Notes: a model not told the origin generated them from the sequence alone. Shown: positions 5,098 through 44,600, counted from the first letter of the stretch. The stretch: 64,000 nt of DNA from Verrucomicrobiia bacterium (GCA_947462875.1 CANHQJ010000004.1:62001-126000), one strand, 5' to 3'. A program made the numbers and translations.

Positions 5098-5230
5098 ATC
5101 GTTGGGCATGAAGGCCGGGCCGAGCGATGTTTTTCCGACTGGCTGAGGAGTGATGTCAGGCGCGTTCGCCCGCTGATGGTGTCGTTGTTTGTGCTTTTCA
5201 TGGTGTTGGATTTTTGCTAGCATTCCAGTC

Positions 5231-8200
5231 ATGTCTTCGCAGCGGTACTGGGCGTTTCTTTCGTATTCCTCGAAAGATGCGGGTTTTGTCAAAAAGCTGC
5301 ACACCAAGCTGGAAACCTACCGCATGCCGCGTGATTTGGTCGGGCGGCCGGGATTGGATGAGCCGATTCCGAAAAAGCTGTTTCCGGTTTTTCGCGATCG
5401 CGATGAATTGCCTCTGGCTTCCGATCTTGGCTCCACGATCCAGGATGCCTTGCATGCCTCGCGATATTTGATCGTGATTTGCTCGCCAAATTCCGCGCGT
5501 TCGCAATGGGTGAATGAGGAGATCCGCTGCTTCAAGGCCATGGGGCGTGCGAACCGCATTTTAGCGCTGATCATCGATGGTGAACCGAATGCGAGTCGCG
5601 ATCCGAACTCTCCCGTCGAAGAATGCTTCCCGCAGGCCTTGCGTTTTCATGTCGATGCCGATGGCACGATCACCGATCAACCGACGGAGCCGATCGCGGG
5701 GGATTTGCGTCCGGGCAAGGATGGCTGGGACATGGCGTTTCTCAAGTGCATCGCGGGCATCACCGGCTGCGGCTTGAATGCACTGACCGCTCGCGAAAAA
5801 AAGCGGGCGCGGCGGCGGAAGTTATTGATGGCAGCTGCGGGCTTGGTTCTTGCCGCTGGTGCCACGGGATGGTGGGACTACACGCGTATCAAAATCCATC
5901 ACTATGCGGAAATCGCCGAGCGCTTCGGGGTGCCGGAGGGCTATCATGAATTGTCATCTGACCAGGTGGCGCACCGGGAGTTGTCCTATAAAGTCGAATC
6001 ATCACGGCGCAAGGTGCGCAGCATCACCTGCGTGCATTCCTCCGGCGTGCCGACGGAACAAGGTGAATTCGATTCGGCGATACAGGAACTGAAATTTGGC
6101 GAAGATGATAGTTTGCAGGAAATCGTTTATCGCAATCCCATGGGCCACATCACGGCGCGACGGATTTTTTCCGCGCTGAAAGACCAGACGCGCATCATAG
6201 AATTCAAAAGCGAACACGATGACTCGCCGCTGGCCTTATCGGCAAAAGACATTTCCATGTCATCCAGCGCATCAATGGCAGCGCGCACGGAGGTGACGGC
6301 GCAGCGCGCTACCTACGCGGACGATGGATCACTGAAAGAGGTGCGTTTTCTCAGCTTGTGGCGTGAACCACGTGCTGATCCGGATGGCGTCTTTGGCATG
6401 CGTTACGAGTATGATGGCAGCTTGCTTCACTCCAAAATCATCAATCTCGATGCCGAGGGGCAGGCAGTGAAGAACCGTCGCGGTTTTGCTGTGGCGAAAT
6501 TCCGCCGCAATGCCATGGGCTTGATTGAGGAGGTGGGGCTGTTTGATGAACAGGAAAATCCTGTCATGGAGCCGGAATTGTATCATTGCTATCGCTATCA
6601 ATATGATCGTTACGGCAATCGCATCATAAAGACTTTTTACGATGAGTCCATGCAGCCCATCGAGGCTTCTCTCGGCTATCATCAAATGGCACTGACCCGA
6701 AGTGATGCCGGAGACATCCTCACGACAAAGTATTACGATCGATCGCTGAAGCCAGTCATGAGCATGGACGGCTACCATGAGGTCAGAGAAACGTATGATG
6801 CCCGCGGGGAAACGCTTTCGACGCAGTACTTCGATCAGAATGGGAAGCCTGCTGTGGACAAATGGCTCGTGCATGAGATGCGCATGACGCGTGATCAGCA
6901 CGGGTATGAAATGTCCCGCGAATATTACGATATCAATCGTGCGCCATTTCTGGGCGGCGAGCGCAGGATTTTCCGGGAGGCCTTTACCTATCATACGAAT
7001 GGCATGTTGCAATCGTTGTCCTACTTTGATGTGGAATTGAAGCCGATGGTGCCTCTTGATTTTGTCGCTCACCGCACCGAGTTCCAAATCGACTCGTTAG
7101 GGCGCTTGAAATCATGGGCGAACTATGATGTCAAAGGGCAACCGATCCGCGGAGCGGAGGGCGAATCGATGGTGCGTGTCAAACACGATCATCGCGGCAA
7201 TGTGATCGAAATGGCGAATTTCGATGCAACAGGAACCGCTTTTGACGTGAATGGATTTCACCGCATTTCCAATGAATTCAATGACCGTGGTCTGATCGTG
7301 AAATCCAGTAACTGGGCCGCGAATGGGCAGCCTGCGAATAACTTCAAAGGAATACATCTTACTGTGACAGAATACGACGATCGAGGTCACAAATCGGGAG
7401 AGAGCTATTTTGCGGCCAATCAGAAAGCCACTGTCGATTTGATCGGCGTGCATCGCTATCAATATCGTCGGGATGACCGTGGCAATGTCTTGGAGGAGCG
7501 CTACTTCGATGTTGCCAATCGTCCGAAACCAGCGAGCAATGGAGTTTACATTTTTCGTTTTCAATACACGGATGCCGGTAAACCGAAGCTCACCCAGTAC
7601 TTTGATAAAGATGACAAACCGATGCTTTCGAATCACGGTATTCATTCCTTTACCGCCACCTATGACAGCCGTGGCAATAATCTCGAAACAGCCTCTTTCG
7701 GCATCGATGGCAAAGCGGTGCGGCACCGTGAAGAGAATGTTCACTGCATTGTGTATGAATACGATGAACGCAATCGCGATGTCGTGGTGCGTTACCTCGA
7801 TGAACAACGCCTGCCGATGGCGGGTTATGAGGGCTGGCATGAGCGGCGCTATGAAAAAGACCTGCGCGGCAATATTACATTAACGCAGTATTTTTCCTCT
7901 GATCGCAAGCCGATGAATTCCGATGATGGCGTCCATTTGCTCCGCGCCCGTTATGATGAAAAAGACCGCTTGCTGGAAAAAAGTTGCTTCGGTCCCGATG
8001 AAAAACCGGTGCTCTGTGATGCGGGATGGCATCGTCTAACGATTGATCGTTTCGATCAAGACAACACGGATGAGTCGCGTTACTTCGGCGTGGATGGCAA
8101 GCCGATCATTCATCCCACCAAAGGCTGGCACAAAGAAAAAGTTTCCTATCCGAAGAATGGCGCGATCAAGGAAGTTTCCTTTTACGATGTGAATGAACAG

Positions 8201-9487
8201 CCTGGCACAGATGCAGAGGGCATTCATCGTTACGTGTATGAAATCTCCCATGGGAATGAAACGGCATGCTCCTACTTTGATAAAAAAGGGCAACCGTACT
8301 ACGTCGGCAATTATTGCCGATGGGAGAAAAGTTTCAACGGCCTGGGGCAGATGACGGAGCTCCGGTGGTACGATGAGGATCGCGAACCGGCATCGAATCC
8401 ATCGGGAGTCTATCGTCAAAGTAAACGCATTCTTGACAGTCGCACGACGGAGTTTGCCAATTTCAATGGTGACGGCAATCCGATGAAGGATAAGGAAGGC
8501 GTTCATCGATGGCGTCAGACGACTGATGATCAGGACCGGATTGTGGAGATTATGTATCTTGATCCGAATGGTGATCCGCTCAAGGAGGCCAACGGAGTGC
8601 ATCGTGTGAAAAACAGGTATGATGCTCGCGGCAATATCATCCGCAAAGAATTTTTACTTGCCAATGGCAAGCCGGCTCTGGTGCCCGCCGGGCACGCGGG
8701 GTATGAAGCGGAATTTGATGAACTCAACCGCGAAATTTCCCACACCTGGATGGGCGAGGATGGCAAGCCGGTGGCGCTTCATGACCATGTGGCCCGTTGG
8801 ACCTCGCGCTACGATGAGAACGGTAAGGAAATCGAGCGCCGTTTTTTCGGTGCAGATTTGCAGCGGACACTGGGAAGCGGTGGGCATCACATGCGCCGCA
8901 GTCAATTTGATGCCGCAGGGAACGAGACGGAGCGCAGTTTTTTTGGCATCAATGACGAACCGGTCGGGATCGAGTACGGTCTGCATCGTTGGGCGGCCCG
9001 TTACCATGCGAACGGCCGGCTGTTAGAAAAATCTTTCTTCGACATCGCGCAGCAAGCGCTTTCCCATCCCGAGGGCAATCATCGGTTTCTCCATACCTTC
9101 GATGACCGGGGCAACCAGATTCGCACGGAATATTTCGGCACTACCGGTGAGCCGGTGCTGTGGGAGAAACAATATCATCGGATTGAGCGCGGTTTTGACC
9201 AAAAGGACAACGAGACAAGCATTCGCTACTTTGGCACCAAGGGCGAACCTGTGGAAAATGACGACGGCTATCACGTGATGGAGAGTCTCTTCGATGACTT
9301 GGGCCGCCCCACGGAAATTACCGTTTCGGATCGCGAGGGCAAGCAACCGTCAAAAATCGCGTTTCGCAAAATGAAGATGAGCTATTATCTCAATCTGCCT
9401 CTCGTCGCAAAAAAATCGTACTATGACAGCGATGGGAAACTGTTGCACGAGCAGAAGCTCGACATGCAGGGCAATCCGATCGACTGA
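5231..9487 (+). CDS. TIR domain, membrane-anchored protein with about 31 tandem 32-residue repeats
   Basis: 1,418 residues from ATG 5231; an upstream TTG at 5189 adds an unlikely leader. Residues 4-150 are a bacterial TIR domain: FLSYSSKDAGFVKKL, the FRDRDEL loop, YLIVICSPNSARSQWVNEEI with Glu97 at the position of the catalytic NADase glutamate. A basic stretch (about 188-197) and one membrane helix (about 198-215) follow. From about residue 400 to the end there are about 31 repeats of 32-33 residues, each like Y-F-D-x-x-x-K-P-x...G-x-H-x-x-x...Y-D-x-R-G-N. They recall YD/RHS-type repeats but with a different period and no RHS core or toxin end. Base composition is lower in GC than its neighbours and TTA codons are less restricted, which hints at separate ancestry. 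Topology predicts TIR in the cytoplasm and repeats outside. A role in sensing or immunity is inference. Confidence 0.9.
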   Translation: MSSQRYWAFLSYSSKDAGFVKKLHTKLETYRMPRDLVGRPGLDEPIPKKLFPVFRDRDELPLASDLGSTIQDALHASRYLIVICSPNSARSQWVNEEIRCFKAMGRANRILALIIDGEPNASRDPNSPVEECFPQALRFHVDADGTITDQPTEPIAGDLRPGKDGWDMAFLKCIAGITGCGLNALTAREKKRARRRKLLMAAAGLVLAAGATGWWDYTRIKIHHYAEIAERFGVPEGYHELSSDQVAHRELSYKVESSRRKVRSITCVHSSGVPTEQGEFDSAIQELKFGEDDSLQEIVYRNPMGHITARRIFSALKDQTRIIEFKSEHDDSPLALSAKDISMSSSASMAARTEVTAQRATYADDGSLKEVRFLSLWREPRADPDGVFGMRYEYDGSLLHSKIINLDAEGQAVKNRRGFAVAKFRRNAMGLIEEVGLFDEQENPVMEPELYHCYRYQYDRYGNRIIKTFYDESMQPIEASLGYHQMALTRSDAGDILTTKYYDRSLKPVMSMDGYHEVRETYDARGETLSTQYFDQNGKPAVDKWLVHEMRMTRDQHGYEMSREYYDINRAPFLGGERRIFREAFTYHTNGMLQSLSYFDVELKPMVPLDFVAHRTEFQIDSLGRLKSWANYDVKGQPIRGAEGESMVRVKHDHRGNVIEMANFDATGTAFDVNGFHRISNEFNDRGLIVKSSNWAANGQPANNFKGIHLTVTEYDDRGHKSGESYFAANQKATVDLIGVHRYQYRRDDRGNVLEERYFDVANRPKPASNGVYIFRFQYTDAGKPKLTQYFDKDDKPMLSNHGIHSFTATYDSRGNNLETASFGIDGKAVRHREENVHCIVYEYDERNRDVVVRYLDEQRLPMAGYEGWHERRYEKDLRGNITLTQYFSSDRKPMNSDDGVHLLRARYDEKDRLLEKSCFGPDEKPVLCDAGWHRLTIDRFDQDNTDESRYFGVDGKPIIHPTKGWHKEKVSYPKNGAIKEVSFYDVNEQPGTDAEGIHRYVYEISHGNETACSYFDKKGQPYYVGNYCRWEKSFNGLGQMTELRWYDEDREPASNPSGVYRQSKRILDSRTTEFANFNGDGNPMKDKEGVHRWRQTTDDQDRIVEIMYLDPNGDPLKEANGVHRVKNRYDARGNIIRKEFLLANGKPALVPAGHAGYEAEFDELNREISHTWMGEDGKPVALHDHVARWTSRYDENGKEIERRFFGADLQRTLGSGGHHMRRSQFDAAGNETERSFFGINDEPVGIEYGLHRWAARYHANGRLLEKSFFDIAQQALSHPEGNHRFLHTFDDRGNQIRTEYFGTTGEPVLWEKQYHRIERGFDQKDNETSIRYFGTKGEPVENDDGYHVMESLFDDLGRPTEITVSDREGKQPSKIAFRKMKMSYYLNLPLVAKKSYYDSDGKLLHEQKLDMQGNPID

Positions 9488-11761: not shown

Positions 11762-12946
11762 ATGAAACATTCTCCCATGCAAATCGGCATCGTTGGCTGT
11801 GGCACCGCTGGCCCGGCCGCGGCCATCATGTTGGCGCGGCAAGGTCATGTGGTGCGGGTCTTCGACAAAGCGGCGAGCTGTCGTGCCGTGGGTGCCGGGT
11901 TCATGTTGCAACCGACGGGCATGGCGGTGCTCGAGGAAATGGGTTTGTTGGAAAAAATCCTGCCGCTGGGTTCCCACATCACCACGCTGCATGTTTGGGA
12001 GAAGGAGCGCACGCTCATGCGTCTGGACTATGAGGACTGGAAAAAAGGCAGCTTCGGCCTCGGTCTGCACCGTCCGGTGCTGTTGCGTGTCCTGCTCGAT
12101 GCCATGGAGCAGACGGGTGTGACGATGTGCTGGGATTGCGAAATCGTGCAGGCGCGGGAAAATCAATCGCGCTGGACGCTGACGGACGATCACGGCGTGG
12201 AGCATGGTCCGTTTGATCTGCTGATCATCGCCGATGGCGCGCGCTCGACCTTGCGTAAATTCGTTTCTCCCGCGGCCGTCGATCATTCGTATCCTTGGGG
12301 TGCACATTGGTTCATCGGCGAAAACAACGGCAGTTTTCCCTCGGACAAACTCCATCAGATCGTCCACGGCACCCGCGTGCTCTGCGGCTTTTTGCCGACA
12401 GGACGGCACACATCCGACTCACCCGAGCTGCTGAGTTTGTTCTGGAGCGTGAACCTGGCCGATGATGCCGCCATTCGCGCGAAGCCGTTAGAGGATTGGA
12501 AAAAGGAAATCCTCCGCCATGAGCCGAAAGCCGACGCGTTTCTGCAACAGATCACCGATTGGAAACAAGTCATCACCGCCCGCTATGGCGATGTGCGTCT
12601 CTTGCGCTGGACCGCTCCGGGCATCGCCGTGCTGGGTGATGCCGCGCATGCCATGAGCCCGCAGCTCGGGCAAGGAGTGAATCTTGCCTTGATGGATGCC
12701 GATGGCTTGGCGGACTGCATCGCGGAGTTTCCTCTGCCGCAGGCGCTGAAAGCCTACACCCGCCGCAGGCTCGCACACATCTGCTACTACCGCGCCGCGA
12801 CGCGTGGACTCACGCCGTTTTTCCAATCATCGCACGATTGGCTCGCGCTGCCGCGTGGGATCGCCTTCCGCACCATGCAGCACATCCGGCCCCTGCGCCA
12901 TGCCATGACCCGCTCGATGGCAGGCGTGATGTTCAGCGGAAAATAG
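11762..12946 (+). CDS. FAD-dependent monooxygenase (UbiH/PHBH-like)
   Basis: 394 residues. The N-terminal Rossmann motif GCGTAG (12-17) binds FAD, followed by LARQGHVVRVFDKA. The second FAD motif GDAAHAMSPQLGQGVNLALMDADGLA lies near residue 293. The middle DLLIIADGARSTLRK is the conserved DG motif of flavoprotein hydroxylases. An alternative start is the ATG at 11777. Substrate cannot be told from sequence; there is no ubiquinone or aromatic pathway gene next to it. It is convergent with the exporter gene at 12956. TTA at 12487 is in GTTAG context. Confidence 0.88.
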   Translation: MKHSPMQIGIVGCGTAGPAAAIMLARQGHVVRVFDKAASCRAVGAGFMLQPTGMAVLEEMGLLEKILPLGSHITTLHVWEKERTLMRLDYEDWKKGSFGLGLHRPVLLRVLLDAMEQTGVTMCWDCEIVQARENQSRWTLTDDHGVEHGPFDLLIIADGARSTLRKFVSPAAVDHSYPWGAHWFIGENNGSFPSDKLHQIVHGTRVLCGFLPTGRHTSDSPELLSLFWSVNLADDAAIRAKPLEDWKKEILRHEPKADAFLQQITDWKQVITARYGDVRLLRWTAPGIAVLGDAAHAMSPQLGQGVNLALMDADGLADCIAEFPLPQALKAYTRRRLAHICYYRAATRGLTPFFQSSHDWLALPRGIAFRTMQHIRPLRHAMTRSMAGVMFSGK

Positions 12947-12955
12947 CGCGCCTCA

Positions 12956-14182
12956 TCACAAACTTTTCCCCGGTGGCAGCAGGGCATTGGCGAAGAGCAA
13001 TCCGGCGACCAGCGCCACAAACAACATCAGCGCCTGGCTGCCGATGTTCGCGCCCGGCAGGATTTGCGTGCCTACGATCCATTGGTTCAGAATCATATAC
13101 GTCGTGCTGCCCGGGACCAACAGAATGATGCCCTGCGTGGAGATCACCGAGGATGGAGCCTTGGCGATGCGGGCGAAACAATTGCTATAGAGCCCCACGC
13201 CCAGCGCGCCGATGAACATGCCCGCGATCATGCCGAACGACTGCCCCACGCGCTGCGAGACAAAAAACGCGATGGCGCAGGAGAGCATGCCCCACACCGC
13301 CTTGCGCCACGGGATGTTGAAAGCCACCGTCAGCGAGAGCGAGAGCAGGATCACGGCGGGCCAGTTTTTTCCCGCCATCATGGCCGCCGGTGCGGACGTG
13401 GCCGTGACGCCGGGCCATAGCAGCGTGGCGGTGGAAATACCCATGATCGCGCCGAACAACAACAGCAGCAGGTGCATGATCGCCTCCACCAGGCGGGAGC
13501 TGCCGGAGATCAGCTGTCGGGCGGAAATCTCACTCATCGCCACCGTCAGCGACAGCCCCGGAATGAACACGAGGATCGAGGACAAAATGACAAAGGGCAC
13601 ATTGATGGGAATGCCTAACGAAAATATCCACTGCGCCACCACGCCGGAAAGAAAGGGCGATAGAATCGTCAGGAGCGATCCCAGGCGCTGGAAACGCATG
13701 CTCAGTGAGAACAGCAAAAACGTCACGATGCTCAGCAGTGCCGAGGCGATCACATCCTGCCAGTAGCCCGAGAGCAAGGTGGCAAAGGCCCCGCCCGTCA
13801 GCGCCCAGCAAAAGCCGTGCACGCAGAGAGGATAGAGCGGCGGTGCTGCGGCGAAGACGGCAAGCGCGCGCATGGCATCGGCGAGCGCGATTTTGCCACG
13901 GCTCACGTTTTCCACCATGGTATCGATCATCCACAAACGTCCGAGATTCAGATCGCCCGGACTGACGCGTTCGATGTGGATTTGCTGGTCATACGGATCC
14001 TCCCGCCAGAACACACAGGTGAATCCCGTGGGGCTGAACAGGAACTGCCCTTTCATATCGAGCATGTGCGTCACATTTGTCAGATGGGTCTCGATCCGCT
14101 GGCTCGATGCCCCGCACTGATGCAGCGCCCGCCCGAGCTCGATCACAAATTGCATGCGTTTCTGATACTCGGGTAGCTCCAT
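12956..14182 (-). CDS. ThrE-type threonine/serine exporter family protein
   Basis: 408 residues. A soluble N-terminal part (1-125) with LGRALHQCGASSQRIETHL and a P-T-G-F-T-C-V-F strand matches the DUF1212 half of ThrE. It is followed by about ten membrane helices, including the DUF3815-like C-terminal half with the loops LVPGSTTYMI and LLPPGKSL. Fusion of both halves in one chain is the ThrE arrangement. ATG 14182 is chosen because the frame upstream to 14428 lacks family similarity. Transport of threonine, serine or another small solute is inferred from the family only. Confidence 0.82.
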   Translation of the reverse strand: MELPEYQKRMQFVIELGRALHQCGASSQRIETHLTNVTHMLDMKGQFLFSPTGFTCVFWREDPYDQQIHIERVSPGDLNLGRLWMIDTMVENVSRGKIALADAMRALAVFAAAPPLYPLCVHGFCWALTGGAFATLLSGYWQDVIASALLSIVTFLLFSLSMRFQRLGSLLTILSPFLSGVVAQWIFSLGIPINVPFVILSSILVFIPGLSLTVAMSEISARQLISGSSRLVEAIMHLLLLLFGAIMGISTATLLWPGVTATSAPAAMMAGKNWPAVILLSLSLTVAFNIPWRKAVWGMLSCAIAFFVSQRVGQSFGMIAGMFIGALGVGLYSNCFARIAKAPSSVISTQGIILLVPGSTTYMILNQWIVGTQILPGANIGSQALMLFVALVAGLLFANALLPPGKSL

Positions 14183-14450
14183 CGCGTGAGCCTCTTCTAT
14201 CGCATGTCCGGGAAGTTGACAAATGAATTGCGGTGAGGGTGGTCGCAGACCGCTTGCGGGAAATGGGGACGGTTGAGATAGTGATATTTTGAACGATTGC
14301 GGACTTTGGTGCTGGCTGCCGGGGATTCTATTCCGCATTACGGTCAGTCTCGTAATCACGATAGCCATTTTTTTATGATCAGGCAGGCATCGGATAGGTC
14401 TGTCTGCGCATATGGGAAAAGCAACCAAGCAGAGTAAGGACCCGGGTCTG

Positions 14451-15455
14451 TTACCAAGCGCGAGGCTGCTGCACGAAAGCCGGGTCAGCTACCTCCGGGG
14501 CATAATAGCGGTGGAACACAGGGCATGCGGAGCCGGACAACGGAGGAACCAGCCAGGACCAGTCACCGGGAACCTGACGACCGCAGCGTTCCTCATTGTC
14601 AATATGAAGCATAAAATGTTCGGAAGCCGTATGGTGATCCACCAAAGTGACACCTGCCGTGCGGAATGAGTGCAGAACCGCGGTGTTGAGTTCGATCAAT
14701 GCGCGGTCTTTCCACAGTGACCGCAACGACCGGACGTCCAATCCCATGCGAGCCGCCACAACGGGCAGGAGATTGTAGCGCTTTTCATCGCCAAAATTCC
14801 GAGAGGCGATCTCCGTGCTCATGTAGTAACCGCTGAATGGAGCCGCCGTGAAACGCCTCCCTATCCCGATCAGTGCCATGTCAGTGACGGCGGGAAGGGC
14901 ATGCCATTTCAAACCCAGATCCGCAAACCAGTCATAATCCGGATGGCTGATGGGCACCTCAAGTACCGCTTCCGAAGGCAATTCAAAAATCTCGGGTTGC
15001 TCTCCCGGGAACTGGATTACGAGCGGCAGTATGTCAAACGCGGTCTTGTCCGCGCGCGGCGTCCAGCCCATCTCCGCAAGTTTGGCGGTGAAGGCCGCCT
15101 GTTCGGGATCACCCAGCACGGTCCCATCCGCATTCCGGTGTCCTGCGTAACGAATCAATTGCCGGTTCCAGATCCGGATCCCACGCCCAGCGGCGTCCGC
15201 CTCACGGAAAACGGTGACGGCAGAGCGAATTCGCCCGCCGTTTGTCGAAAACCGCAGGTGCTTGATGCAGGCCTCAAATACCTCAGCGGGCGAGTCCGCC
15301 GCCCTGGCGTCGAGTAACTCGAGGCTCTGCCACAACAAGCGCCCAATGCAGCGGGAGTTATTGCGCCAGGCAATTCGGGCCATCTGAGCCAGCTCGCCAC
15401 TTGTCGCTTGCGGTAGAAAATCAGAATCTGAATCCATAGGAGATGATTTATACAC
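14451..15455 (-). CDS. nos: Bacterial nitric oxide synthase oxygenase domain
   Basis: 334 residues from GTG 15455, or 328 from ATG 15437. It is predicted to oxidise L-arginine to NO and citrulline at a thiolate-ligated haem. Conserved points: WRNNSRCIGRL with haem ligand Cys36, the LPAVTDM...FTAAPFSGYYMSTEIASRNF segment with the arginine-binding Glu215, the RYN block, and DWSWLVPPLSGSACPVFHRYY at the pterin/dimer face. Like other bacterial enzymes it has no reductase domain. The N-terminus is about 30 residues shorter than in Bacillus or Staphylococcus enzymes; an in-frame TAA 54 bases upstream of the GTG excludes a long extension. No flavodoxin or reductase lies nearby. Confidence 0.9.
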   Translation of the reverse strand: MYKSSPMDSDSDFLPQATSGELAQMARIAWRNNSRCIGRLLWQSLELLDARAADSPAEVFEACIKHLRFSTNGGRIRSAVTVFREADAAGRGIRIWNRQLIRYAGHRNADGTVLGDPEQAAFTAKLAEMGWTPRADKTAFDILPLVIQFPGEQPEIFELPSEAVLEVPISHPDYDWFADLGLKWHALPAVTDMALIGIGRRFTAAPFSGYYMSTEIASRNFGDEKRYNLLPVVAARMGLDVRSLRSLWKDRALIELNTAVLHSFRTAGVTLVDHHTASEHFMLHIDNEERCGRQVPGDWSWLVPPLSGSACPVFHRYYAPEVADPAFVQQPRAW

Positions 15456-15678
15456 GGAATCTTTCCCGCATCTGTGATGCCACTTGATCTGATCAAGGTC
15501 TTACAGCACCCAGTTGCGATAAAAATCGTCTTGGGAGGGAAAGTAGAGCAAGTAGATGGGAAAATCAATAGTTGCCCATCATCGTCTTCATCCAGCAACG
15601 CACGCTCATTTCTGGATCGTGCCGGGAGGCCGGATGCCGGTTGACAAAACAGGGACTTTGGAACAGGTTGCGGGCGTC

Positions 15679-16569
15679 ATGAAAGAGAAAAAGATCGGTG
15701 TCGTTGGCGTGGGACGGATGGGGGCGAATATGGCTCGTCGGTTGAAGGATGTGGGCTATGAGGTGACGGTGGTGTATGATCGGTTTCCGGCACTCGCGGA
15801 GGCACTTGCGGCGGAGCTCGGCTGCACGGCGGCGGCCACGTTGGCGGAGGTATCGGCGGCGGCGGAGGTGGTTCTCACGGTGGTGACGGACGATGCGGCG
15901 ATGCGCGGGATTTTTGCGAAAGAAGGCGATTCGTTGTTGGAAATGGCGGAGGGGCGTTTGTTCATCAACTGCGCGACGGTGAGTCCCCAGGTGCACGAAG
16001 AGGTCACGGCGGCTTGTGAGGCGGTGGGGGCATCGGCGCTGGAGGCGTGCATGGCATCTAGCATCACGCAGGCGCGGGAAGGGACGCTGTATCTGATGAT
16101 AGGCGGCAAGGAGAGTGATTACCTCGCGGCGGAACCGCTGCTTCACGATCTCTCGACGGCCTTGCGCTACGTCGGCCCGGTGGGCAAGGCGGCGCAGGTG
16201 AAGGCGCTGGTCAACATGGTGATGAACATCAACACGGCGGGTCTTGCCGAAGGACTGGGACTCGGTGCGGCGCTGGGGCTGGACCTGGCGATGCTGAAGG
16301 AAATTTTCTCCCAGACGGGCGCGAACTCGCGCGTGCTGGTGACGGATGGCGATGACATGATCGCCCGTGAGCATGATTGTTATTTCAGCGCGGCGCATGC
16401 GGCGAAGGACAGTGGCATCGCGAACGCGCTCGCCGCACAGGCGGGGGTGGCGGTTCCCTTGTCGGTAGCCACACAGGCGCAGTATGATGCGATGGTCGCG
16501 CGCGGACTCGGGGAACTCGACAAGTCGGGCATCGCCGAGCTGACCTTTCCCGGACGTGGCTCCCTCTAA
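15679..16569 (+). CDS. NAD(P)-dependent beta-hydroxyacid dehydrogenase (HIBADH family)
   Basis: 296 residues. The Rossmann motif GVGRMG (10-15) is at the start as expected when translation begins at ATG 15679; the frame is open from 15556 but the extra residues do not belong to the family. Lys175 in KAAQVKALVNMVMN is the catalytic lysine, and the substrate segment FINCATVSPQ plus the C-terminal helical domain (KDSGIANALAAQAGVAVPLS) fit 3-hydroxyisobutyrate/glyoxylate reductase-type enzymes. The exact substrate is not determinable. It is followed after 8 bases by an alpha/beta hydrolase, probably co-transcribed. Confidence 0.9.
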   Translation: MKEKKIGVVGVGRMGANMARRLKDVGYEVTVVYDRFPALAEALAAELGCTAAATLAEVSAAAEVVLTVVTDDAAMRGIFAKEGDSLLEMAEGRLFINCATVSPQVHEEVTAACEAVGASALEACMASSITQAREGTLYLMIGGKESDYLAAEPLLHDLSTALRYVGPVGKAAQVKALVNMVMNINTAGLAEGLGLGAALGLDLAMLKEIFSQTGANSRVLVTDGDDMIAREHDCYFSAAHAAKDSGIANALAAQAGVAVPLSVATQAQYDAMVARGLGELDKSGIAELTFPGRGSL

Positions 16570-16577
16570 TCATTTTT

Positions 16578-17300
16578 ATGAAACTTCCCATTTCCAACGC
16601 GCAGGGTGAGGTCCTCGATGTCGCCTATCATTCCGCGGAAAAATCCGACAGGCTGCTCATTCTCGGGCACGGCGTGACAGGCAACAAGGACAGGCCTTTG
16701 CTGATTGCGGTGGCGGAAGGCTTGGCCGCGCGTGGGTGGCCTTGTTTGCGGATTTCGTTCAGTGGCAATGGCGAGTCGCAAGGTCGATTCGAGGATTCCT
16801 CGATCACCAAGGAAATCGGCGATTTGCAGGCGGTGCTCGATGCGATTCCCGACACCACACGCGTGGCCTATTGCGGGCACAGCATGGGTGGTGCCGTGGG
16901 CGTTTTGACGGCGGTGCGCGATGAACGCGTGCGCGTGTTGATCACGCTGGCGGGCATGGTGTTTACCAAGGAATTCTGCGAGCGAGAATTCGGCGAAGTC
17001 ACCCCCGGCGCGGGCTGCATGTGGGACGAGGAAACGTGTCCGTTATCCCAGGCCTATGTGGATGACCTGCATTGGCACGGATCCACGCTCGATGCCGCCG
17101 CTGCGATGCAAGTGCCGTGGTTGCTCGTGCACGGCACGGCCGATGACGTGGTGTTTCCCCGCGATAGCGAGGCGGCGTATGAAGCCGCACCTGAGCCGAA
17201 AAAACTCGTGAGCATCGGGGGAGCGGGGCACTCGTTCGATGAGGCTACCTACGCCACGGTGATCGAGGAGATCCATGCCTGGCTGGACAAGCATCTGTAA
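16578..17300 (+). CDS. Alpha/beta hydrolase
   Basis: 240 residues with a complete catalytic triad: Ser102 in GHSMGG, Asp in HGTADDVV and His in GAGHSFD near the C-terminus. The oxyanion region is LGHGVTGNKD. There is no signal peptide, so it is cytoplasmic. It resembles short-chain esterase or acylpeptidase-like hydrolases, but the substrate is unknown. It lies 8 bases behind the HIBADH-type dehydrogenase and is convergent with a lipoprotein gene. Confidence 0.85.
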   Translation: MKLPISNAQGEVLDVAYHSAEKSDRLLILGHGVTGNKDRPLLIAVAEGLAARGWPCLRISFSGNGESQGRFEDSSITKEIGDLQAVLDAIPDTTRVAYCGHSMGGAVGVLTAVRDERVRVLITLAGMVFTKEFCEREFGEVTPGAGCMWDEETCPLSQAYVDDLHWHGSTLDAAAAMQVPWLLVHGTADDVVFPRDSEAAYEAAPEPKKLVSIGGAGHSFDEATYATVIEEIHAWLDKHL

Positions 17301-17303
17301 GAC

Positions 17304-17678
17304 TCACTCGTTTTTCGGAGGCAGCAAACCGAACTCAGGGTTGTCCAGCGCGCCGCTGGGCAGTTCCGGTTCTTTGAAATCGACAGGTTTGCCGAACCAG
17401 GAGCTGAAAAAACCGCGGTTTTTCTGATACGCGAGAGCCTTGTCCTTGCCGAGTTGCATTTCCTTGAGCTGGTCTTCCCGCACCTCGACGACGGGCACCT
17501 TGGAGGGCAGCAGGTCGCGGAAAGAGAAGCGGGCGATGTCGCCGCGTTTGATTTCCGGCATCTTGGGCGCTGAAACCTTGGGCATTTTGTTTTTCAGCGA
17601 GGCAATGGACCCGGAAAGACCGCAGGAACTCAAGCCGAGCGAAAGAACTGCGAGTGCGATGGGGAAAAGACGTTTCAT
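17304..17678 (-). CDS. Small lipoprotein of unknown function
   Basis: 124 residues. The N-terminus is a lipoprotein signal: MKRLFPIALAVLSLG, then lipobox LSSC with the lipidated Cys at residue 19. The mature part is charged and lysine-rich, with a repeated K-M-P-K-V/E-I pattern (NKMPKVSAPKMPEIK) and a FFSSWFGKPVDFKEPELP segment. No known domain is recognisable. Its stop lies 3 bases from the convergent hydrolase stop. It probably belongs to a lineage-restricted envelope protein group. Confidence 0.78.
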   Translation of the reverse strand: MKRLFPIALAVLSLGLSSCGLSGSIASLKNKMPKVSAPKMPEIKRGDIARFSFRDLLPSKVPVVEVREDQLKEMQLGKDKALAYQKNRGFFSSWFGKPVDFKEPELPSGALDNPEFGLLPPKNE

Positions 17679-17768
17679 GACTGTTGCGGGAGCACTTCCT
17701 ATATAGCATCGCTCGGACCAACTTCCAAGTCAATTTTTTGTCACGTGGCGGAATTGTCACGGAATGTT

Positions 17769-18356
17769 TTATGCCCCCATCTCCGGCAATAACGTATGGT
17801 GGCGGGGGACGCCGGTCAGGGCGGCATCGAGCTGGAGGCGCTGGCTCATGGCGGCTACGGCGCGGGCGAGGAGATCGACGTCGCCACGGGCATCGTGACG
17901 GCGCAGGGACGTTTCCGCGAGGCCGAGGCGGGATTTCACGTGATCGAGCGAGTGGCCGAGGCCGCGGGTTTTGCCGAACAAGAGCTTCGAGATGTGGATG
18001 GAGTCGATGCAGGGAATGTCGCGCACCGCTTGGCCGTGACGGCGGCTGGTGGCGGCGAGAAATTTCGAATCAAAGCGCAGACCGTTGTGCGCGATCAGGG
18101 TGGAGTCGCCGAGCCATTCGGAAAACGCGCACAGCACTTGTCCGGGGCTGGGGGCCTGGGCGACGTGGTGATTGCCGATGCCGGTGTAGCTTTCGATGAA
18201 CGAGGAGATCCGCTGACGCGGGCGGGCAAAGCTGAAAAAGGCGTCCTCCGCGATCATTCGGCCGTGGCAAAAGCGGACGGCGGCGATCTGGATCAGGTCA
18301 TCCGTCTCTGGATGGAGGCCGGTGGTTTCGAGGTCGTAGATGGCGAAAGTGTGCAT
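17769..18356 (-). CDS. DEDDh 3'-5' exonuclease (DnaQ-like)
   Basis: 195 residues. The exonuclease I motif is YDLETTG with Asp8 and Glu10, motif II is LIAHNGLRFDSKFL, and motif III is RRHDARGDVDLLA with the general-base His and the last Asp. This is a complete DEDDh site for hydrolysis of DNA or RNA 3' ends. As a free-standing protein it could be a proofreading subunit, an RNase T/oligoribonuclease-like enzyme or a general nuclease; there is no polymerase gene nearby to decide. rlmN lies 39 bases upstream on the same strand. Confidence 0.88.
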   Translation of the reverse strand: MHTFAIYDLETTGLHPETDDLIQIAAVRFCHGRMIAEDAFFSFARPRQRISSFIESYTGIGNHHVAQAPSPGQVLCAFSEWLGDSTLIAHNGLRFDSKFLAATSRRHGQAVRDIPCIDSIHISKLLFGKTRGLGHSLDHVKSRLGLAETSLRRHDARGDVDLLARAVAAMSQRLQLDAALTGVPRHHTLLPEMGA

Positions 18357-18395
18357 GGAAATTTTCTAACAAAAGCCGGTGCCGGCGGTGCGGGT

Positions 18396-19475
18396 TCACG
18401 AGGCGCGATCGGCCTTGAGCTGGCCGCAACCGGCGGCGACATCGATGCCGCGGCGCTGGCGGAAGGTCACGGGATAGCCGGCGCTGCGCAGGATGCGTTG
18501 GAAGGCGATGCCGGCCTTGTGCGCGCTGGCGTTCCCCGCGTAGCCAGCGGTGGGATTCAGGGGGATCAGATTGATGTGGACGTTGATGCCCTGTAGCAAC
18601 TCCGCGAGCTGGTGGGCGATTTCCGGCGTGTCATTGGCACCCGCGATCAAGGTCCACTCGATGAAAATGCGTTTGCCGATGGTGCGATCGTAGTGCCGGC
18701 AGGCCTCGATGAGTTCGGCCATGTGCCATTTTTTTCCGACGGGGATCAGGGCTTGTCGTTGCGCATCATCGGCACCGTGAAGACTGAGCGCGAGGTTGTA
18801 GGGGCAGCCTTCATCGGCCATGCGGCGGATGGCGGGGACGAGGCCGACGGTGCTGATGGTGATGCGGTGTTTCGACAAACTGGGACCGCGCACATCGGCG
18901 ATGGTGGCCAGCGCTTTCATCACGGCATCGTAGTTGTGCAGTGGCTCGCCCATGCCCATGAGCACGAGATTGCGCAAGTGAGTGCCGTGGTCGCGGCGCA
19001 GGATGCGCTGCACGTGCAGCACCTGGGCGATGATCTCGCCGGGGCGCAGGTGGCGGGTGAAACCCATTTGCCCGGTGGCACAGAAGACGCAGCCCATGGC
19101 GCAGCCGACCTGCGTGCTGACGCAGGCGGTGAAGCGACCATCGTAGCCCATCAGAACGGTCTCGATCGTTTTTCCATCGCGCAGGCGGAGGAGAAATTTC
19201 CGCGTCATGCCATCGCTGCTGCGGGTCTCGGTGACGGTCTCCGGGGCATCGACAAAATATCCGGCATCGTCCGCATAAAAATGTTTCTCCAGCCAGCGCT
19301 GCAAGGGGCCGAGAAAAGTGGCGGGCATTTTCTCTAACAGATCGGCGTGTCCATGGAGGGAACGCCAGAGAGCGCGGGCGTGGATGGCATTCAGGCCATC
19401 TTCCTGCAGCAACGACTGCATTTCGGCGAAGCTTAGATCGTGCAGAGAGCGTGGTTGGCCCGGTGCGGCAGACAT
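18396..19475 (-). CDS. rlmN: 23S rRNA (adenine-2503-C2)-methyltransferase, radical SAM
   Basis: 359 residues. The radical-SAM cluster motif C125-x3-C129-x2-C132 is seen in GCAMGCVFCATG. Two further conserved cysteines are Cys118 (TACVSTQ) and Cys350 (AAGCGQL), the methyl-carrying residue in the RlmN/Cfr mechanism. VLMGMGEPLHNYD and ISTVGLVPAIRRMA are family signatures. It modifies A2503 of 23S rRNA and tRNA A37. ATG 19475 is chosen because the reading up to 19589 overlaps the cyclophilin gene end and adds no family sequence. Confidence 0.95.
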   Translation of the reverse strand: MSAAPGQPRSLHDLSFAEMQSLLQEDGLNAIHARALWRSLHGHADLLEKMPATFLGPLQRWLEKHFYADDAGYFVDAPETVTETRSSDGMTRKFLLRLRDGKTIETVLMGYDGRFTACVSTQVGCAMGCVFCATGQMGFTRHLRPGEIIAQVLHVQRILRRDHGTHLRNLVLMGMGEPLHNYDAVMKALATIADVRGPSLSKHRITISTVGLVPAIRRMADEGCPYNLALSLHGADDAQRQALIPVGKKWHMAELIEACRHYDRTIGKRIFIEWTLIAGANDTPEIAHQLAELLQGINVHINLIPLNPTAGYAGNASAHKAGIAFQRILRSAGYPVTFRQRRGIDVAAGCGQLKADRAS

Positions 19476-34793: not shown

Positions 34794-36230
34794 TCATATA
34801 GATTCGGGGAACTCAAGAGGTTTGTAATCAAATGCCTCGAGCTTTGTTTTCCTAAGAGCAAGCGTCTCATGAAATTCTTGTGCCTCAATATCCTTGAAGA
34901 AAGGAGCATCAGGTGCAAGATCCCTAACTGCACTTTCGACATCATCCAGGGTCACACGAAAAAATTCCTTCCGAAAGTTTGTTACATTGATTCTGCTGTC
35001 GGCAAATTTTAGATGTAAAGCGCGTTCTAATGCTGGTGCATCTTCACTGTAAATGATAGCATGTGTGTCGAAGATAAATGGAACACTTGCATCGCCTAAT
35101 TCACGCACACGATCTTGCGGATCTAGTCGCCGTGTTAGGCCAATTTTAATGACGTCTGAGCCGAAGGATCCGATATTGGATATGATGTATACATATCCGG
35201 ATTTTGTAAGTTGAGCCATAGATTTTGCTCGTTCCGCTTTTTCATGCGCAGCAGCGAGATCCCTTTCTAGCATTTCGATCTTTTGAGTGTATTGTTCGAG
35301 TTTAGAACCTTCGTGATTTCCGGCTTCTATTCTGGCTTTTTCAAGAAGCTTAGCGAATTTTGATTCCTCACGCTCTGCATCTTCAATATCACGTAGTAGT
35401 TTTTGCTCTTCACGTGCAGCACGCGCCGATTCTGCTTTCTCCTCTTTTTCGAATTTTAATTTTTCTCTGTACTCGTGGGTGAGACGAAGTTCTTGAAGTT
35501 TAAGGTTGAAATAGCCATCGGTGATTTTAATGGCATTTGTTTCGTTTAGTTTGTTGATTTGATCACGAACGAGATAAAGACGTTTTTCCATGGCGGCAGC
35601 ATTGTTCCAACGAGTATTGGAGATTGCTGCGTCACATTCCCCATTTAATGCCCTAAGCGTTAGACGTATGTTTCGATCTGTCATCGCTTTTCCTTTTGCT
35701 TTACTGCCTGTTAGTAGCCATTCGGTCTCACAAATGACTGCCGTTTTTTCAGATATTCTTGCTTTCTGTCTAGAACGCACATCTTCAATTGCTTTCTTGA
35801 AAGCTTCGCTATCACTATAGTCGAAATGTGGTTGATAGATTCCGACCTCGGCAAATGCCATTCTTTCGTCTATGATGGCGACTTCATGGGAGAGTTTGTT
35901 AAAAATCTCTTTTTTGTCGTAATATTGCTTCTTCAGACTAGTTAACTCTCCAAGCAATTTTTCTTTTTGCGCCTCAATTTCTGCTAAATTGATTTTATGA
36001 TTTTCTTGAATTTTTGATATTTCATCTTCGATTTCGATGATGTGCCTAAACCTTGCTTCAGTTGCTGACCGGTATTCGAATTCGCTTTGTAATGATTTTC
36101 CCAAGTCGGAAATTTTTTGTGTTTGATTTCCGGAAATCGTTTTGAGGAGTGCGTTTTTTTTCGTGGTGAAAATTAATCCCGCAATACTCGCGGTAATAAG
36201 AATGATTAGTAATATTTCTAGAAGAGTCAT
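34794..36230 (-). CDS. Membrane-anchored DUF4041/GIY-YIG nuclease, SNIPE-like
   Basis: 478 residues from ATG 36230; a GTG start at 36266 would add 12. The N-terminus is one membrane helix (about 3-22) followed by coiled coil (about 30-115), a DUF4041-like domain (about 120-250: GIYQPHFDYSDSEAFKKAIEDVRSRQKARISEKTA), another charged coil (about 260-345) and a C-terminal GIY-YIG nuclease of the T5orf172/MUG113 kind: GYVYIISN, VIKIGLTRR, and the catalytic Glu in LERALHLKF. Membrane anchor plus DUF4041 plus GIY-YIG is the layout reported for SNIPE, which cuts phage DNA during injection. The gene is markedly AT-rich compared with all neighbours and stands alone, as expected for an acquired defence gene. 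Function here is inferred. Confidence 0.85.
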   Translation of the reverse strand: MTLLEILLIILITASIAGLIFTTKKNALLKTISGNQTQKISDLGKSLQSEFEYRSATEARFRHIIEIEDEISKIQENHKINLAEIEAQKEKLLGELTSLKKQYYDKKEIFNKLSHEVAIIDERMAFAEVGIYQPHFDYSDSEAFKKAIEDVRSRQKARISEKTAVICETEWLLTGSKAKGKAMTDRNIRLTLRALNGECDAAISNTRWNNAAAMEKRLYLVRDQINKLNETNAIKITDGYFNLKLQELRLTHEYREKLKFEKEEKAESARAAREEQKLLRDIEDAEREESKFAKLLEKARIEAGNHEGSKLEQYTQKIEMLERDLAAAHEKAERAKSMAQLTKSGYVYIISNIGSFGSDVIKIGLTRRLDPQDRVRELGDASVPFIFDTHAIIYSEDAPALERALHLKFADSRINVTNFRKEFFRVTLDDVESAVRDLAPDAPFFKDIEAQEFHETLALRKTKLEAFDYKPLEFPESI

Positions 36231-36275
36231 TCGATTGGAATTATTAATTTTTACAGAATAAAACACACATTTCTA

Positions 36276-38457: not shown

Positions 38458-38480
38458 CAGACATAAGACGTAAGACTTGA
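38458..38480 (+). repeat. Left arm of 23-bp inverted repeat flanking the S23 gene
   Basis: The 23 bases pair with 38931-38953 at 22 of 23 positions in inverted orientation (mismatch at the 13th base). The arm itself contains a short direct repeat of the AAGACNTAAGAC kind. It starts 13 bases after the metK stop. Confidence 0.85.
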
Positions 38481-38506
38481 ATGATTCAACCAAATCGATT
38501 CCGCAT

Positions 38507-38893
38507 ATGGCACATCATCATTTTGAAGAATTGGAGATTTGGAAAAGAAGCTCTCGTCTTGCGGTTTCGGTGCTGCTTTTGACGGAAAAAATTTCTCTTT
38601 ATGCTTTGCGCGATCAGATGTCACGAAGCTCGATTTCCGTGCCTTCGAATATTGCCGAAGGTGCGGAGCGAGATAGCGACAAGGAGTTCCGTAGATTTTT
38701 GTCCATTGCCAAAGGTTCGCTCGCTGAGCTACGCACGCAACTTTACATCGCAGTCAAAGCGGAGATTCTAACTACGGATGAAGTCACACCTCTAATCGCA
38801 GAAACCAGAGAGCTTGCGGCTATGATTCAAGCATTTCGCAAACGTCTTGGCGGCGATGGATTCATCAACAAAATCGTATCACTTTTTATCTAA
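38507..38893 (+). CDS. Four-helix-bundle protein of the S23 (23S rRNA intervening sequence) family
   Basis: 128 residues from ATG 38507. It carries the family signature: FEELEIWKRSSRLAVSV at the start, LRDQMSRSSISVPSNIAEGAERDSDKEFRRFLSIAKGSLAELRTQLYIAVKAEI in the middle, and a final helix. Four amphipathic helices are predicted. The family is best known from intervening sequences in 23S rRNA genes, where the gene sits in an inverted repeat. Here gene plus 23-bp inverted repeat (38458-38953) sits between metK and ahcY. Lower GC than both neighbours supports insertion. Biochemical role of the protein is unknown. Confidence 0.9.
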   Translation: MAHHHFEELEIWKRSSRLAVSVLLLTEKISLYALRDQMSRSSISVPSNIAEGAERDSDKEFRRFLSIAKGSLAELRTQLYIAVKAEILTTDEVTPLIAETRELAAMIQAFRKRLGGDGFINKIVSLFI

Positions 38894-41644: not shown

Positions 41645-44600
41645 ATGAAAGCCAAAAAAGCCAACTATCTTCTCCGTCATCTTCTTCATTTCGCAGGACC
41701 TGCGATTTTTGTCACTTGTCTCTCAACAGCCCATGCGCAGAATCGTTTCTGGGATGGAGGCTCGGCAAATATCGCCGGCAACGGGAATGGTGCCAGCGGT
41801 GGTGGCGCAGGAACCTGGAACACGACACTAACGAATTGGGATGAGGGGGCTTCGCCCATGGTAGCATGGAACAATGCCAATTTGAACACGGCGGTATTTG
41901 GCGGAACAGCCGGCACGGTTACCATCAACGCGCCTGTTTCCGCGGGCGGGCTCACGTTCACCGCAGCGGGATACACGATTGCCAGTGGAGCCTCCCCTAA
42001 CGTGCTGACACTGGGTGGCACCTCCGCTACCATCACCACCAGTGCGCTGACCACGGCGCAAAGCACCACAATCAGTGCGATCATTGCAGGCAACTTGACA
42101 GGCGGTCTTACCATCGCATCCAACGGGGACATGACCGCATCGGGCGGCGGTGCCGCAGGGCGCGGTGTGATCTTCAGTGGGACCAACACCTTCACGGGCA
42201 ACATCACGGTGACTTCGGGTCTCTTCAGTCCTGGCGCTGATGGAACTCTGGGTAATGCGGCGAATACCATCACTCTCAACGGCGGCGGTCTGTTGGCTAA
42301 CGTCACGAATACGATCTCTCGAGCTGTGGCTTATGGAGCATCGAATGGCACGATCCGCGTTTACGGCTCTCAAACCCTCACCATGAGCGGAATCCAGAGC
42401 GGCTCCGGAACACTCACGAAAACCGATAGCGGCATCCTCATCCTCTCCAACAGTGCTAATACACGGACTGGCACCAGCACCATCAGCGCGGGTGAACTTC
42501 AGGCTCTCTCCCCCACTGCTGCGGGAACCTACACCACCCTCGGCACCGGCGCGATCACCGCAGCCTCCGGCACCACGCTCCGATTCAGGACCGGCAGCAC
42601 CGCCAACGTGATCACCTACGCGAACGCCATCAACCTGAACGGAGCCACCCTCATCCATGAGGACGGCAATCACACCCTAACCGGGGCCGTCGCTCTCACC
42701 GGCAGCAACACCATCAACGGCATCTGGGCCGGGAAGAACCTCACCCTTTCAGGCGTGATCAGCAGCACAGGTTCCATCATCAAGACCAATGCCTCCGGCC
42801 AGGACACCGTCCTGTCGCTTTCCACGGCTTCCGGTAACAACACCTTCACCGGCGGAGTCACCATCAACGCGGGCGAACTTCGCGGAGTTGTTCCAACCAC
42901 CGCCGCCACCTACACTCCCTTCGGCACCGCAGCAGTAACCGCGAATGCTGGCACCACCCTGCGCGTCTTCACCGGCAGCACCGCGAACGTACTGACGATC
43001 ACCAACGCGATCAACCTCAACAGCGCGACCCTCGCGCACGAGGACGGAAACTTTACCCTCAGCGGCGCCATGGTTCTCAACGGCAACAACACCGTGACCG
43101 GTCGTTATGCCGGGAAAAACCTTACCCTTTCGGGCGCGATCAGCGGACCAGGTTCCATCATCAAGACCAATACCTCCGGCCAGGACACCGTCCTGACGCT
43201 TTCAGGAAACAACACCTTTTTCGGCGGTGTCACCGTCAGTGATGGCAGCGTCCGCGCCAACACCGCCACCGCCCTCGGCAGCGGCGTCTCTATTCTCGTT
43301 CAGAACAACGAGAACCCGGCTGCCCCCAACACCAACACACTGCAGATCGCCGGCGGATTTACCCATGGCACAGGAAGAACCCTCACGCTGCGCAACAACT
43401 CCACGACCAACGTCACAAACGCCAGAGCAGCGGTCGATAACGTCTCAGGCAACAACACCTGGGCTGGCACTATCCTCCTCGATCAGGGCACCAACCAGAC
43501 CATCAGTTCGAGTAGCGGCACCTTCACGATCTCAGGTAATGTCAACCAGTCGGCAACGCCTTCGACTGGCCTGTTTGTCCGAGGCAATGGCACCGGACTT
43601 GTGAGTGGAAACCTGAACCTCGGCTCAGCCGCCCTCTTCAAGACCGATGGTGGCACCTGGACCGTTAGCTCTACCGGCAACACTCACGGCACCATCACCG
43701 TCGCCAACGGGACTCTCGCCGCCGGAGCCACGAACGCCTTTCAGACCTCGAACGCTCTTGTGCTCGGCGAGGGCAATGGGAACAACGGACGCTTCACCAT
43801 CAACACGGGCTTCAGCCAGTCGTTCAGCTCGATCTCCAACAACGCCTCCACCACCGGCTCCCACACCATTGATGGTGCCGGCTCGCTGAACGTCGGCGCA
43901 GGTGGCATGACCCTGACCGTCAATGATGGCACCGCCGTCAACGACATCACCCTGGCCGCTCCGGTCATCGGTTCCGGCACACTCACCAAGGCGGGCGCAG
44001 GAAACCTCGTCTTCAACAGCACCACTGAGGGTCCCCTCCTCCTGAGCGCCGGTACCCTCAGCGGCACCGGCACCGCCTCGTCAATCACCACTGCGGCAGG
44101 CACGACCCTCACTCCGGGATCCGCCACCACCGTCGGCACCCTGACCACCTCCAGTCTGGCGCTCGTGGATGGCACGGTCGCCGTTAATCTCGGCAATTCC
44201 GGCACCGACGTAATCAGCGTCACCGCCGCGAACGGCCTGACCCAGAGCGGCAGCACCGTGATCTCCGTGACTCCGAACGGTGCCATCAATACCGCCTCCA
44301 CCTTCTACCCGATCTTCGCCTACTCCGGCACCGCTCCCTCCACCGCAGGATTCAGCGTCACCGGCCTGCCTCCACGCGCGGCAGCAACCGTGACCGACAA
44401 CGGCAGTGGTCTCATCGGCATCACTGCCAGCAATGACCGGGTCAAATGGACCGGCGTCACCAATGGAACCTGGGACATCAACACCACCGCCAACTGGCTG
44501 ACCGTCGTCGGCGCAGCCGCCGTAACCTACCTCCAGAATGACGACCTTCTCTTCGACGATTCCGGAATCAATACCAACATCACCCTTGGAACCACGGTGA

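What the first reader, a model, noticed from the sequence alone, without database searches (positions are those of the whole stretch)
5231..9487. TIR-TM protein with about 31 tandem 32-residue repeats, a possible new membrane immune receptor
Seen: a TIR domain with the NADase glutamate position filled (Glu97 in SQWVNEE), one membrane helix, and about 1,000 residues of one repeat type (Y-F-D-x3-K-P...G-x-H...Y-D-x-R-G-N). Known: bacterial TIR domains act as NADases in several antiphage systems. Inference: the repeats form an extended extracytoplasmic sensor and TIR the internal effector. I know no described defence system with this layout.
Basis: partly seen in the sequence, partly recalled or inferred. 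Interest (0 to 1): 0.78.

Follow-up and report, generated by a model that had tools for sequence, protein, structure and literature searches.

The report
Membrane TIR receptor with RHS-like repeats
A bacterial protein joins an NAD-cutting immune-type TIR domain inside the cell to a long RHS-like repeat arm probably outside it, and its relatives sit beside genes for proteins that probably bind NAD-derived signals, so it looks like the alarm sensor of a little-known bacterial signalling and probable self-defence system.

Summary
An intact 1,418-residue gene (5231-9487, +) encodes a TIR domain, one membrane helix, a β-rich juxtamembrane region and 31 repeats (about 29 near full length) of 32 residues. 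Glu97 is invariant in 113 of 113 related TIRs. The repeats are not a new fold: homologues exceed Pfam's RHS_repeat cut-off, and a confident model (pLDDT 96) matches RHS proteins and teneurins.

The layout recurs across Verrucomicrobiota, Planctomycetota and Pseudomonadota, mostly as one TIR clade. The wider TIR-TM family carries swappable rear parts (TPR, WD40-like).

The new point is partners. Of 80 family loci, 30 have a SLOG- or RyR-domain gene within about 9 kb, mostly within 1.5 kb; RyR is otherwise rare. The window gene has no such neighbour, but its genome holds a SLOG-membrane gene elsewhere. In its genus both genes are intact together (2 genomes), or neither is intact (8).

Best reading: an envelope-facing sensor whose TIR makes an NAD-derived signal read by a SLOG/membrane effector, probably antiviral. 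Architecture, conserved Glu and gene linkage are shown; topology, NAD chemistry, ligand and antiphage role are inferred. A new variant of known TIR signalling systems (Thoeris-like), not categorically new.

The parts
5231..9487 (+). gene for the 1,418-aa TIR-TM-RHS-like repeat protein (stop codon included)
   Evidence: full-length homologue 67% identical in G006
5246..5770 (+). TIR domain (residues 6-180)
   Evidence: PF13676/PF08937; fold match Z 14.3 to SPARTA TIR over model residues 3-180, also SARM1 and RUN1
5519..5521 (+). codon of Glu97, the expected catalytic glutamate (WVNEE)
   Evidence: invariant in 113/113; aligns with the E of the WTEYE stretch of the solved bacterial TIR 7uxr
5822..5878 (+). 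predicted membrane helix (residues 198-216; model helix 182-218), preceded by REKKRARRRK
5891..6364 (+). conserved beta-rich juxtamembrane region (residues 221-378; FGVPEG motif, Pro235 and Gly237 invariant)
6365..9307 (+). 31 tandem 32-residue RHS/YD-like beta-hairpin repeats (residues 379-1359)
5098..9485 (.). segment absent from the close relative G004, where the cobalamin adenosyltransferase and MoxR genes are about 160 bp apart

Best explanation
A single-pass membrane sensor. The RHS-like beta-hairpin array stands outside the cytoplasmic membrane and detects an envelope event (phage, injected or surface protein, or damage). Binding clusters or re-orients the cytoplasmic TIR, which cleaves NAD+ and releases an ADP-ribose-type signal. 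That signal is read by a SLOG-domain membrane protein; in this genome the candidate is the 553-codon open frame on contig C32, in many relatives the adjacent SLOG, RyR-TrkA_N or RyR-TPR-S-SLOG protein. The partner then perturbs the membrane or ion balance and stops growth, a Thoeris-like abortive response. Shown: architecture, conserved Glu, predicted repeat fold, gene linkage. Inferred: topology, NAD cleavage, signal identity, ligand, antiphage role.
For: Glu97 and Asp56 invariant in 113 TIRs. TIR fold close to NAD-cleaving TIRs such as SPARTA and SARM1. TIR-TM-repeat proteins from three phyla form one supported clade (100/91), 8 of 9 rows with repeats; the ninth ends at a contig edge. In 80 family loci: 27 SLOG, 13 RyR, 30 either; 29 of 33 such genes lie within 1.5 kb of a TIR ORF. 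Background in 57 related genomes (about 254 Mb): 10 RyR and 25 SLOG matches, so under 0.2 of each expected by chance in the 1.12 Mb scanned. Five of the eight repeat-bearing loci outside the Akkermansia-type genus have these partners (L054-L058). L058's SLOG-membrane gene, 111 bp from a TIR-repeat gene, is a full-length homologue of the window genome's SLOG protein (24%, E 1.6e-23). In the genus both genes are intact in G000 and G006, both broken in G003 and G008, and the close relative G004 lacks both. RyR domains of phage proteins bind or cleave 2'/3'cADPR (PMC13232231); SLOG of ThsA senses cADPR isomers (PMC11204291, abstract). PDZ-like C-termini in L056 and L058 fit an extracytoplasmic arm.
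Against: No SLOG, RyR or defence gene adjoins the window gene, so its partner is inferred in trans. Genus co-occurrence rests on 10 genomes (Fisher p 0.022, uncorrected for kinship), with only two intact pairs. The 80 loci include near relatives, so the neighbour count overstates independent events; the background genomes are other taxa. The helix is weakly hydrophobic here and PDZ matches are below cut-off. A TIR-less TM-repeat family exists in the Akkermansia-type genus, so the arm has uses without a fused TIR. No biochemical or infection data.
Confidence: 0.5

Rival explanations
1. Stand-alone NADase: on sensing, the TIR simply depletes NAD+ and halts the cell, with no messenger and no partner.
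For: The window gene has no partner next to it; many bacterial TIR effectors deplete NAD+ (established knowledge; e.g. the Cat1 and SpbK papers listed). Three of the eight repeat loci outside the Akkermansia-type genus (L053, L059, L060) also lack SLOG/RyR neighbours.
Against: Strong linkage of the family to SLOG and RyR genes and shared gain/loss with the SLOG gene in the genus.
Confidence: 0.2
2. Non-immune sensor: the array monitors cell-wall or envelope state, or neighbour contact, and the TIR signal tunes physiology rather than stopping phage-infected cells.
For: RHS/YD and teneurin repeats serve in contact and secretion systems (known families; fold match). No defence island at the window. 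TIR-less TM-repeat proteins are common in the related genus.
Against: Patchy presence, broken copies in relatives, a clean gene-presence difference at one site and a phylum-crossing TIR tree are typical of conflict genes; L054 and L055 lie with other TIR, patatin and restriction-type genes.
Confidence: 0.15
3. The repeats are cytoplasmic and the helix is only a tether or not a membrane helix at all; the array scaffolds or senses inside the cell.
For: Helix weakly hydrophobic in this protein; relatives carry WD40-like and TPR rear parts, which are often cytoplasmic.
Against: Clear membrane segments in homologues at the same place and positive charge on the TIR side; PDZ-like ends in some homologues.
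Confidence: 0.15

Closest known systems
Thoeris (ThsB TIR plus ThsA SLOG/macro effectors)
   Same: TIR with catalytic Glu; the second-best Pfam match is ThsB_TIR, above its cut-off; partner genes with SLOG domains near many relatives
   Different: Membrane-anchored TIR with a repeat arm; partners are SLOG-membrane, RyR-TrkA_N or RyR-TPR-S-SLOG proteins, no SIR2-SLOG ThsA found; ThsB profiles in PADLOC score only weakly
Predicted NAD-signal conflict systems with TPR-S, SLOG and SLATT (Burroughs and Aravind 2015 and 2020, from memory; the 2020 text is not held)
   Same: Relatives' partners carry TPR-S (PF20308), SLOG, SLATT-like and RyR domains, of which those authors predicted several to read NAD-derived signals
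   Different: I recall no description there of a TIR-TM protein with an RHS-like extracytoplasmic arm, and no paper held mentions one
RHS/YD repeat proteins and teneurins
   Same: Homologues' repeats exceed PF05593 (up to 43.2 bits, cut-off 22); Foldseek top hits are Rhs effectors, with teneurins below
   Different: 32-residue unit with GKP and GxH motifs, no RHS core or toxin domain found, fused to a TIR; the window protein itself is below the RHS cut-off
Toll-like receptors
   Same: Repeat arm, one membrane helix and TIR domain: similar layout
   Different: Reverse order (TIR N-terminal), RHS-like instead of LRR repeats, expected enzymatic TIR; a resemblance of layout, not evidence of descent

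Membership tests
TIR NADase family | TIR fold | tested here: met
   PF13676 43.7 bits; model Z 14.3 to SPARTA TIR
TIR NADase family | conserved catalytic Glu | tested here: met
   Glu97 invariant in 113/113
TIR NADase family | NAD+ cleavage | not testable with these tools
   needs an enzyme assay
Thoeris | ThsB-type TIR at family score | tested here: inconclusive
   Pfam ThsB_TIR above cut-off, PADLOC ThsB 13.5 bits only, NCBIfam far below cut-offs
Thoeris | cognate ThsA (SIR2-SLOG) effector in the genome | tested here: inconclusive
   PF18185 no match in own genome, but no control rang either; the SLOG gene found is SLOG-membrane
Thoeris | TIR gene adjacent to its effector gene | tested here: not met
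   no SLOG or RyR profile match within the window
RHS/YD repeat family (PF05593) | repeat profile above curated cut-off | tested here: inconclusive
   homologues above (31.5, 28.5, 23.8, 43.2 bits), window protein not listed
RHS/YD repeat family (PF05593) | beta-hairpin repeat fold like RHS | tested here: met
   model pLDDT 96.3; 26 matches at E<=0.001, top ones Rhs proteins; TM-scores low, so curvature differs
RHS polymorphic toxin | RHS core and C-terminal toxin domain | tested here: not met
   PF03527 only 11.3 bits against 27.9 and no toxin domain in the Pfam scan; the array runs nearly to the C-terminus
TIR + SLOG/RyR/TPR-S signalling systems | SLOG, RyR or TPR-S partner linked to the TIR gene | tested here: inconclusive
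   met in 30 of 80 family loci; for the window only in trans, with shared gain/loss in 10 genomes

The most novel reading that the evidence does not exclude
A bacterial transmembrane TIR receptor family with an RHS-like extracytoplasmic array feeds an ADP-ribose-type messenger to RyR- or SLOG-gated membrane proteins (RyR-TrkA_N channel-like proteins in relatives, a SLOG-membrane protein in trans here): a prokaryotic counterpart of cADPR-to-ryanodine-receptor signalling used for defence.
Probability: 0.3. Interest if true: 0.88.

Novelty: new variant of a known kind. Interest (0 to 1): 0.66.

Why it matters
Most studied bacterial TIR systems sense infection inside the cell. A family that couples a TIR to an outward-facing repeat array, across three phyla, would resemble Toll-like receptors in layout and would show how bacteria sense threats at the envelope. 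The linkage to RyR-domain, channel-like proteins makes an open question testable: whether cADPR-RyR signalling in animals has a bacterial immune counterpart. A 2026 preprint (PMC13232231) shows phage RyR proteins binding or cleaving such signals; the loci here suggest bacterial proteins that would read them.

Tried and rejected
Direct defence-family assignment: PADLOC and NCBIfam gave only weak TIR-level matches. Plasmid and phage collections: no full-length homologue; only the TIR part, in 9 plasmids, and nothing in phages. Defence island at the window: neighbours are ketoacyl synthase, NadA, 5-FTHF cyclo-ligase, cobalamin adenosyltransferase, MoxR, an exonuclease/endonuclease-family protein, with no defence hit beyond weak AAA matches of MoxR. 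The nearby nadA is probably coincidence, since the TIR gene is at another site in G006. RyR in the own genome: none found, while the same model rang in 5 relatives. First repeat alignment A3 had shifted registers and was replaced by A5. Literature: no paper held describes TIR with RHS repeats; Burroughs and Aravind 2020 is not held. MORN_2 was only a sub-threshold hit.

Full report
What is there. The window is a stretch of contig C4 of a 3.95-Mb genome, by its nearest relatives one of the Akkermansiaceae; the nearest named relative of the gene is on a MAG filed as Akkermansia muciniphila MiE-14oct19-73 (89% identity over the TIR-TM query). The gene at 5231-9487 (+) is open, 1,418 codons, with a full-length homologue 67% identical in a congener. 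The TIR is clear and its expected catalytic Glu97 is invariant in every relative aligned (19, 13 and 113 sequences). A structure model (pLDDT 85) puts a long helix at 182-218, then β-strands. The TIR part superposes on NAD-cleaving TIRs: Z 14.3 with SPARTA, 12.8 with SARM1. The helix is Ala/Gly rich and weak by hydropathy in this protein, stronger in homologues.

The repeats. The period is 32 with 31 units at residues 379-1359, about 29 near full length; shuffled sequence gives nothing comparable. Six units modelled with 18 sequences reach pLDDT 96.3; each is a β-hairpin followed by a loop that holds the GKP and GxH motifs. Foldseek's best matches are Rhs effectors, then the single-layer sheet of OspA and teneurins. 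TM-scores are low, so the local hairpin ladder matches while the overall curvature differs. By sequence, several homologues pass the RHS_repeat cut-off; the window copy does not. I therefore call them RHS/YD-like, not a new repeat. Within the window protein units are 26% identical on average; in L055 and L139 they are 60-65%, with pairs up to 88-100%, and variation is concentrated in a few positions, which points to recent tandem expansion.

How widespread. The broader family is TIR-TM with an exchangeable rear part: WD40-like, TPR, helical repeats, or this array (seen by reading translations; not all profiled). A tree of 113 TIRs places the window TIR in a clade (100/91) of nine, eight of which carry the array; the ninth, L100, is cut by its contig end. 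The clade spans Verrucomicrobiota, Planctomycetota and Vreelandella (Gammaproteobacteria), so the gene has probably moved between phyla. L060 and the Akkermansia-type genus proteins L138, L139 and L141 carry a similar juxtamembrane region and array on other TIR lineages (long branches make the latter placement unsure), so arm and TIR may have been re-paired.

Partners. Reading the neighbourhoods of the repeat loci showed SLOG-type proteins near L054-L058 and the same RyR-TrkA_N membrane protein beside both L055 and L056, from different phyla. Pfam confirmed RyR, TrkA_N, guanylate cyclase, SLATT-like (below cut-off) and patatin domains. The SLOG call itself rests on the VGxTGHR-type Rossmann sequence and my own profiles, as no Pfam SLOG model was hit. 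Iterated profiles over all 80 loci found SLOG in 27, RyR in 13, either in 30; 29 of 33 such genes are within 1.5 kb of a TIR ORF, 17 within 300 bp. Several proteins fuse RyR with SLOG, some also with TPR-S and a cyclase domain. In 57 related genomes (about 254 Mb by summing the listed sizes) there are 10 RyR matches and 25 SLOG matches, so chance predicts well under one of each in 1.12 Mb. Two cautions: the 80 loci are not independent, and the background is from one order.

The window's own case. No SLOG or RyR profile matches inside the window. The genome has one SLOG match, on contig C32, directly after a GH75-like gene; the protein has about three hydrophobic segments and aligns end to end with L058's SLOG-membrane protein, whose gene is 111 bp from a TIR-repeat gene. 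Across the ten genomes of the genus, both genes are intact in G000 and G006. In G003 and G008 both are broken, by different lesions. G002 and G007 keep only SLOG remnants. G001, G004 and G009 have neither; G005 has only a distant SLOG. The GH75-like gene is present and matched nearly end to end wherever tested, so the loss is specific to the SLOG gene. G004, with 93-94% identical flanking proteins, has a clean site without the TIR gene. The Fisher value is 0.022, and 0.0014 for TIR-TM against SLOG over 57 genomes, neither corrected for kinship. Some of these genomes are fragmented, and a contig end (as in G003) can mimic a broken gene.

Mechanism. The most economical reading is a sensor that uses its outer array to detect an envelope event and its TIR to make an NAD-derived signal for a SLOG or RyR reader, often membrane-embedded. 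SLOG sensing of cADPR isomers is established for Thoeris (PMC11204291, as listed), and phage RyR-domain proteins bind or cleave 2' and 3'cADPR (PMC13232231). SLATT has been predicted to be an ADPr-derivative-regulated membrane effector (PMC9503650). What the array binds, which product is made and whether the outcome is phage defence are not shown. Burroughs and Aravind (J Bact 2020) predicted a TPR scaffold that reads NAD-derived signals; I cite this from memory because the text is not held.

A TIR-less TM-array family in the related Akkermansia-type genus shows that the arm also occurs without a fused TIR.

Noticed in passing
window 34797-36266 (-): DUF4041/T5orf172 protein with a very strong PADLOC match to PD-Lambda-1 (534 bits), an antiphage system; weak coding-composition signal suggests recent acquisition.
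   Followed up: partly
window 41645-52147 (+): 3,501-residue protein with eight PATR (passenger-associated transport) repeats, probably a giant autotransporter-like surface protein.
   Followed up: no
window 38477-38890 (+): 23S rRNA intervening-sequence-type protein (PF05635, 111 bits) in a setting of protein-coding genes.
   Followed up: no
L145, L147, L150, L152, L156-L162: Akkermansia-type genus proteins of about 410 residues: short cytoplasmic tail, membrane helix, similar juxtamembrane region and a few RHS-like repeats, but no TIR; present in many of these genomes.
   Followed up: partly
L139:292-3411, L055:8965-11985: Arrays with nearly identical units and a few variable positions, as in rapidly changing recognition repeats; the positions could be mapped on the model.
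   Followed up: partly
L040, L057, L063, L068, L076, L077, L081, L119: Proteins fusing RyR and SLOG, several with TPR-S and a cyclase-like domain, near TIR-TM genes.
   Followed up: partly
L038:7322-9295 (own genome, contig C5): Second TIR-TM protein of the window genome, 658 aa, with a different, apparently helical rear part.
   Followed up: no
L164:7853-9268 (own genome, contig C32): GH75 chitosanase-like protein with an N-terminal hydrophobic segment, conserved throughout the genus, with the SLOG gene starting at its stop codon; why these two are coupled is unknown.
   Followed up: partly
L054:1635-6774 and 12755-18747: Second TIR protein beside the SLOG-membrane gene, and helicase/restriction-type and methyltransferase-like genes with a transposase nearby: a defence-island-like setting.
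   Followed up: partly
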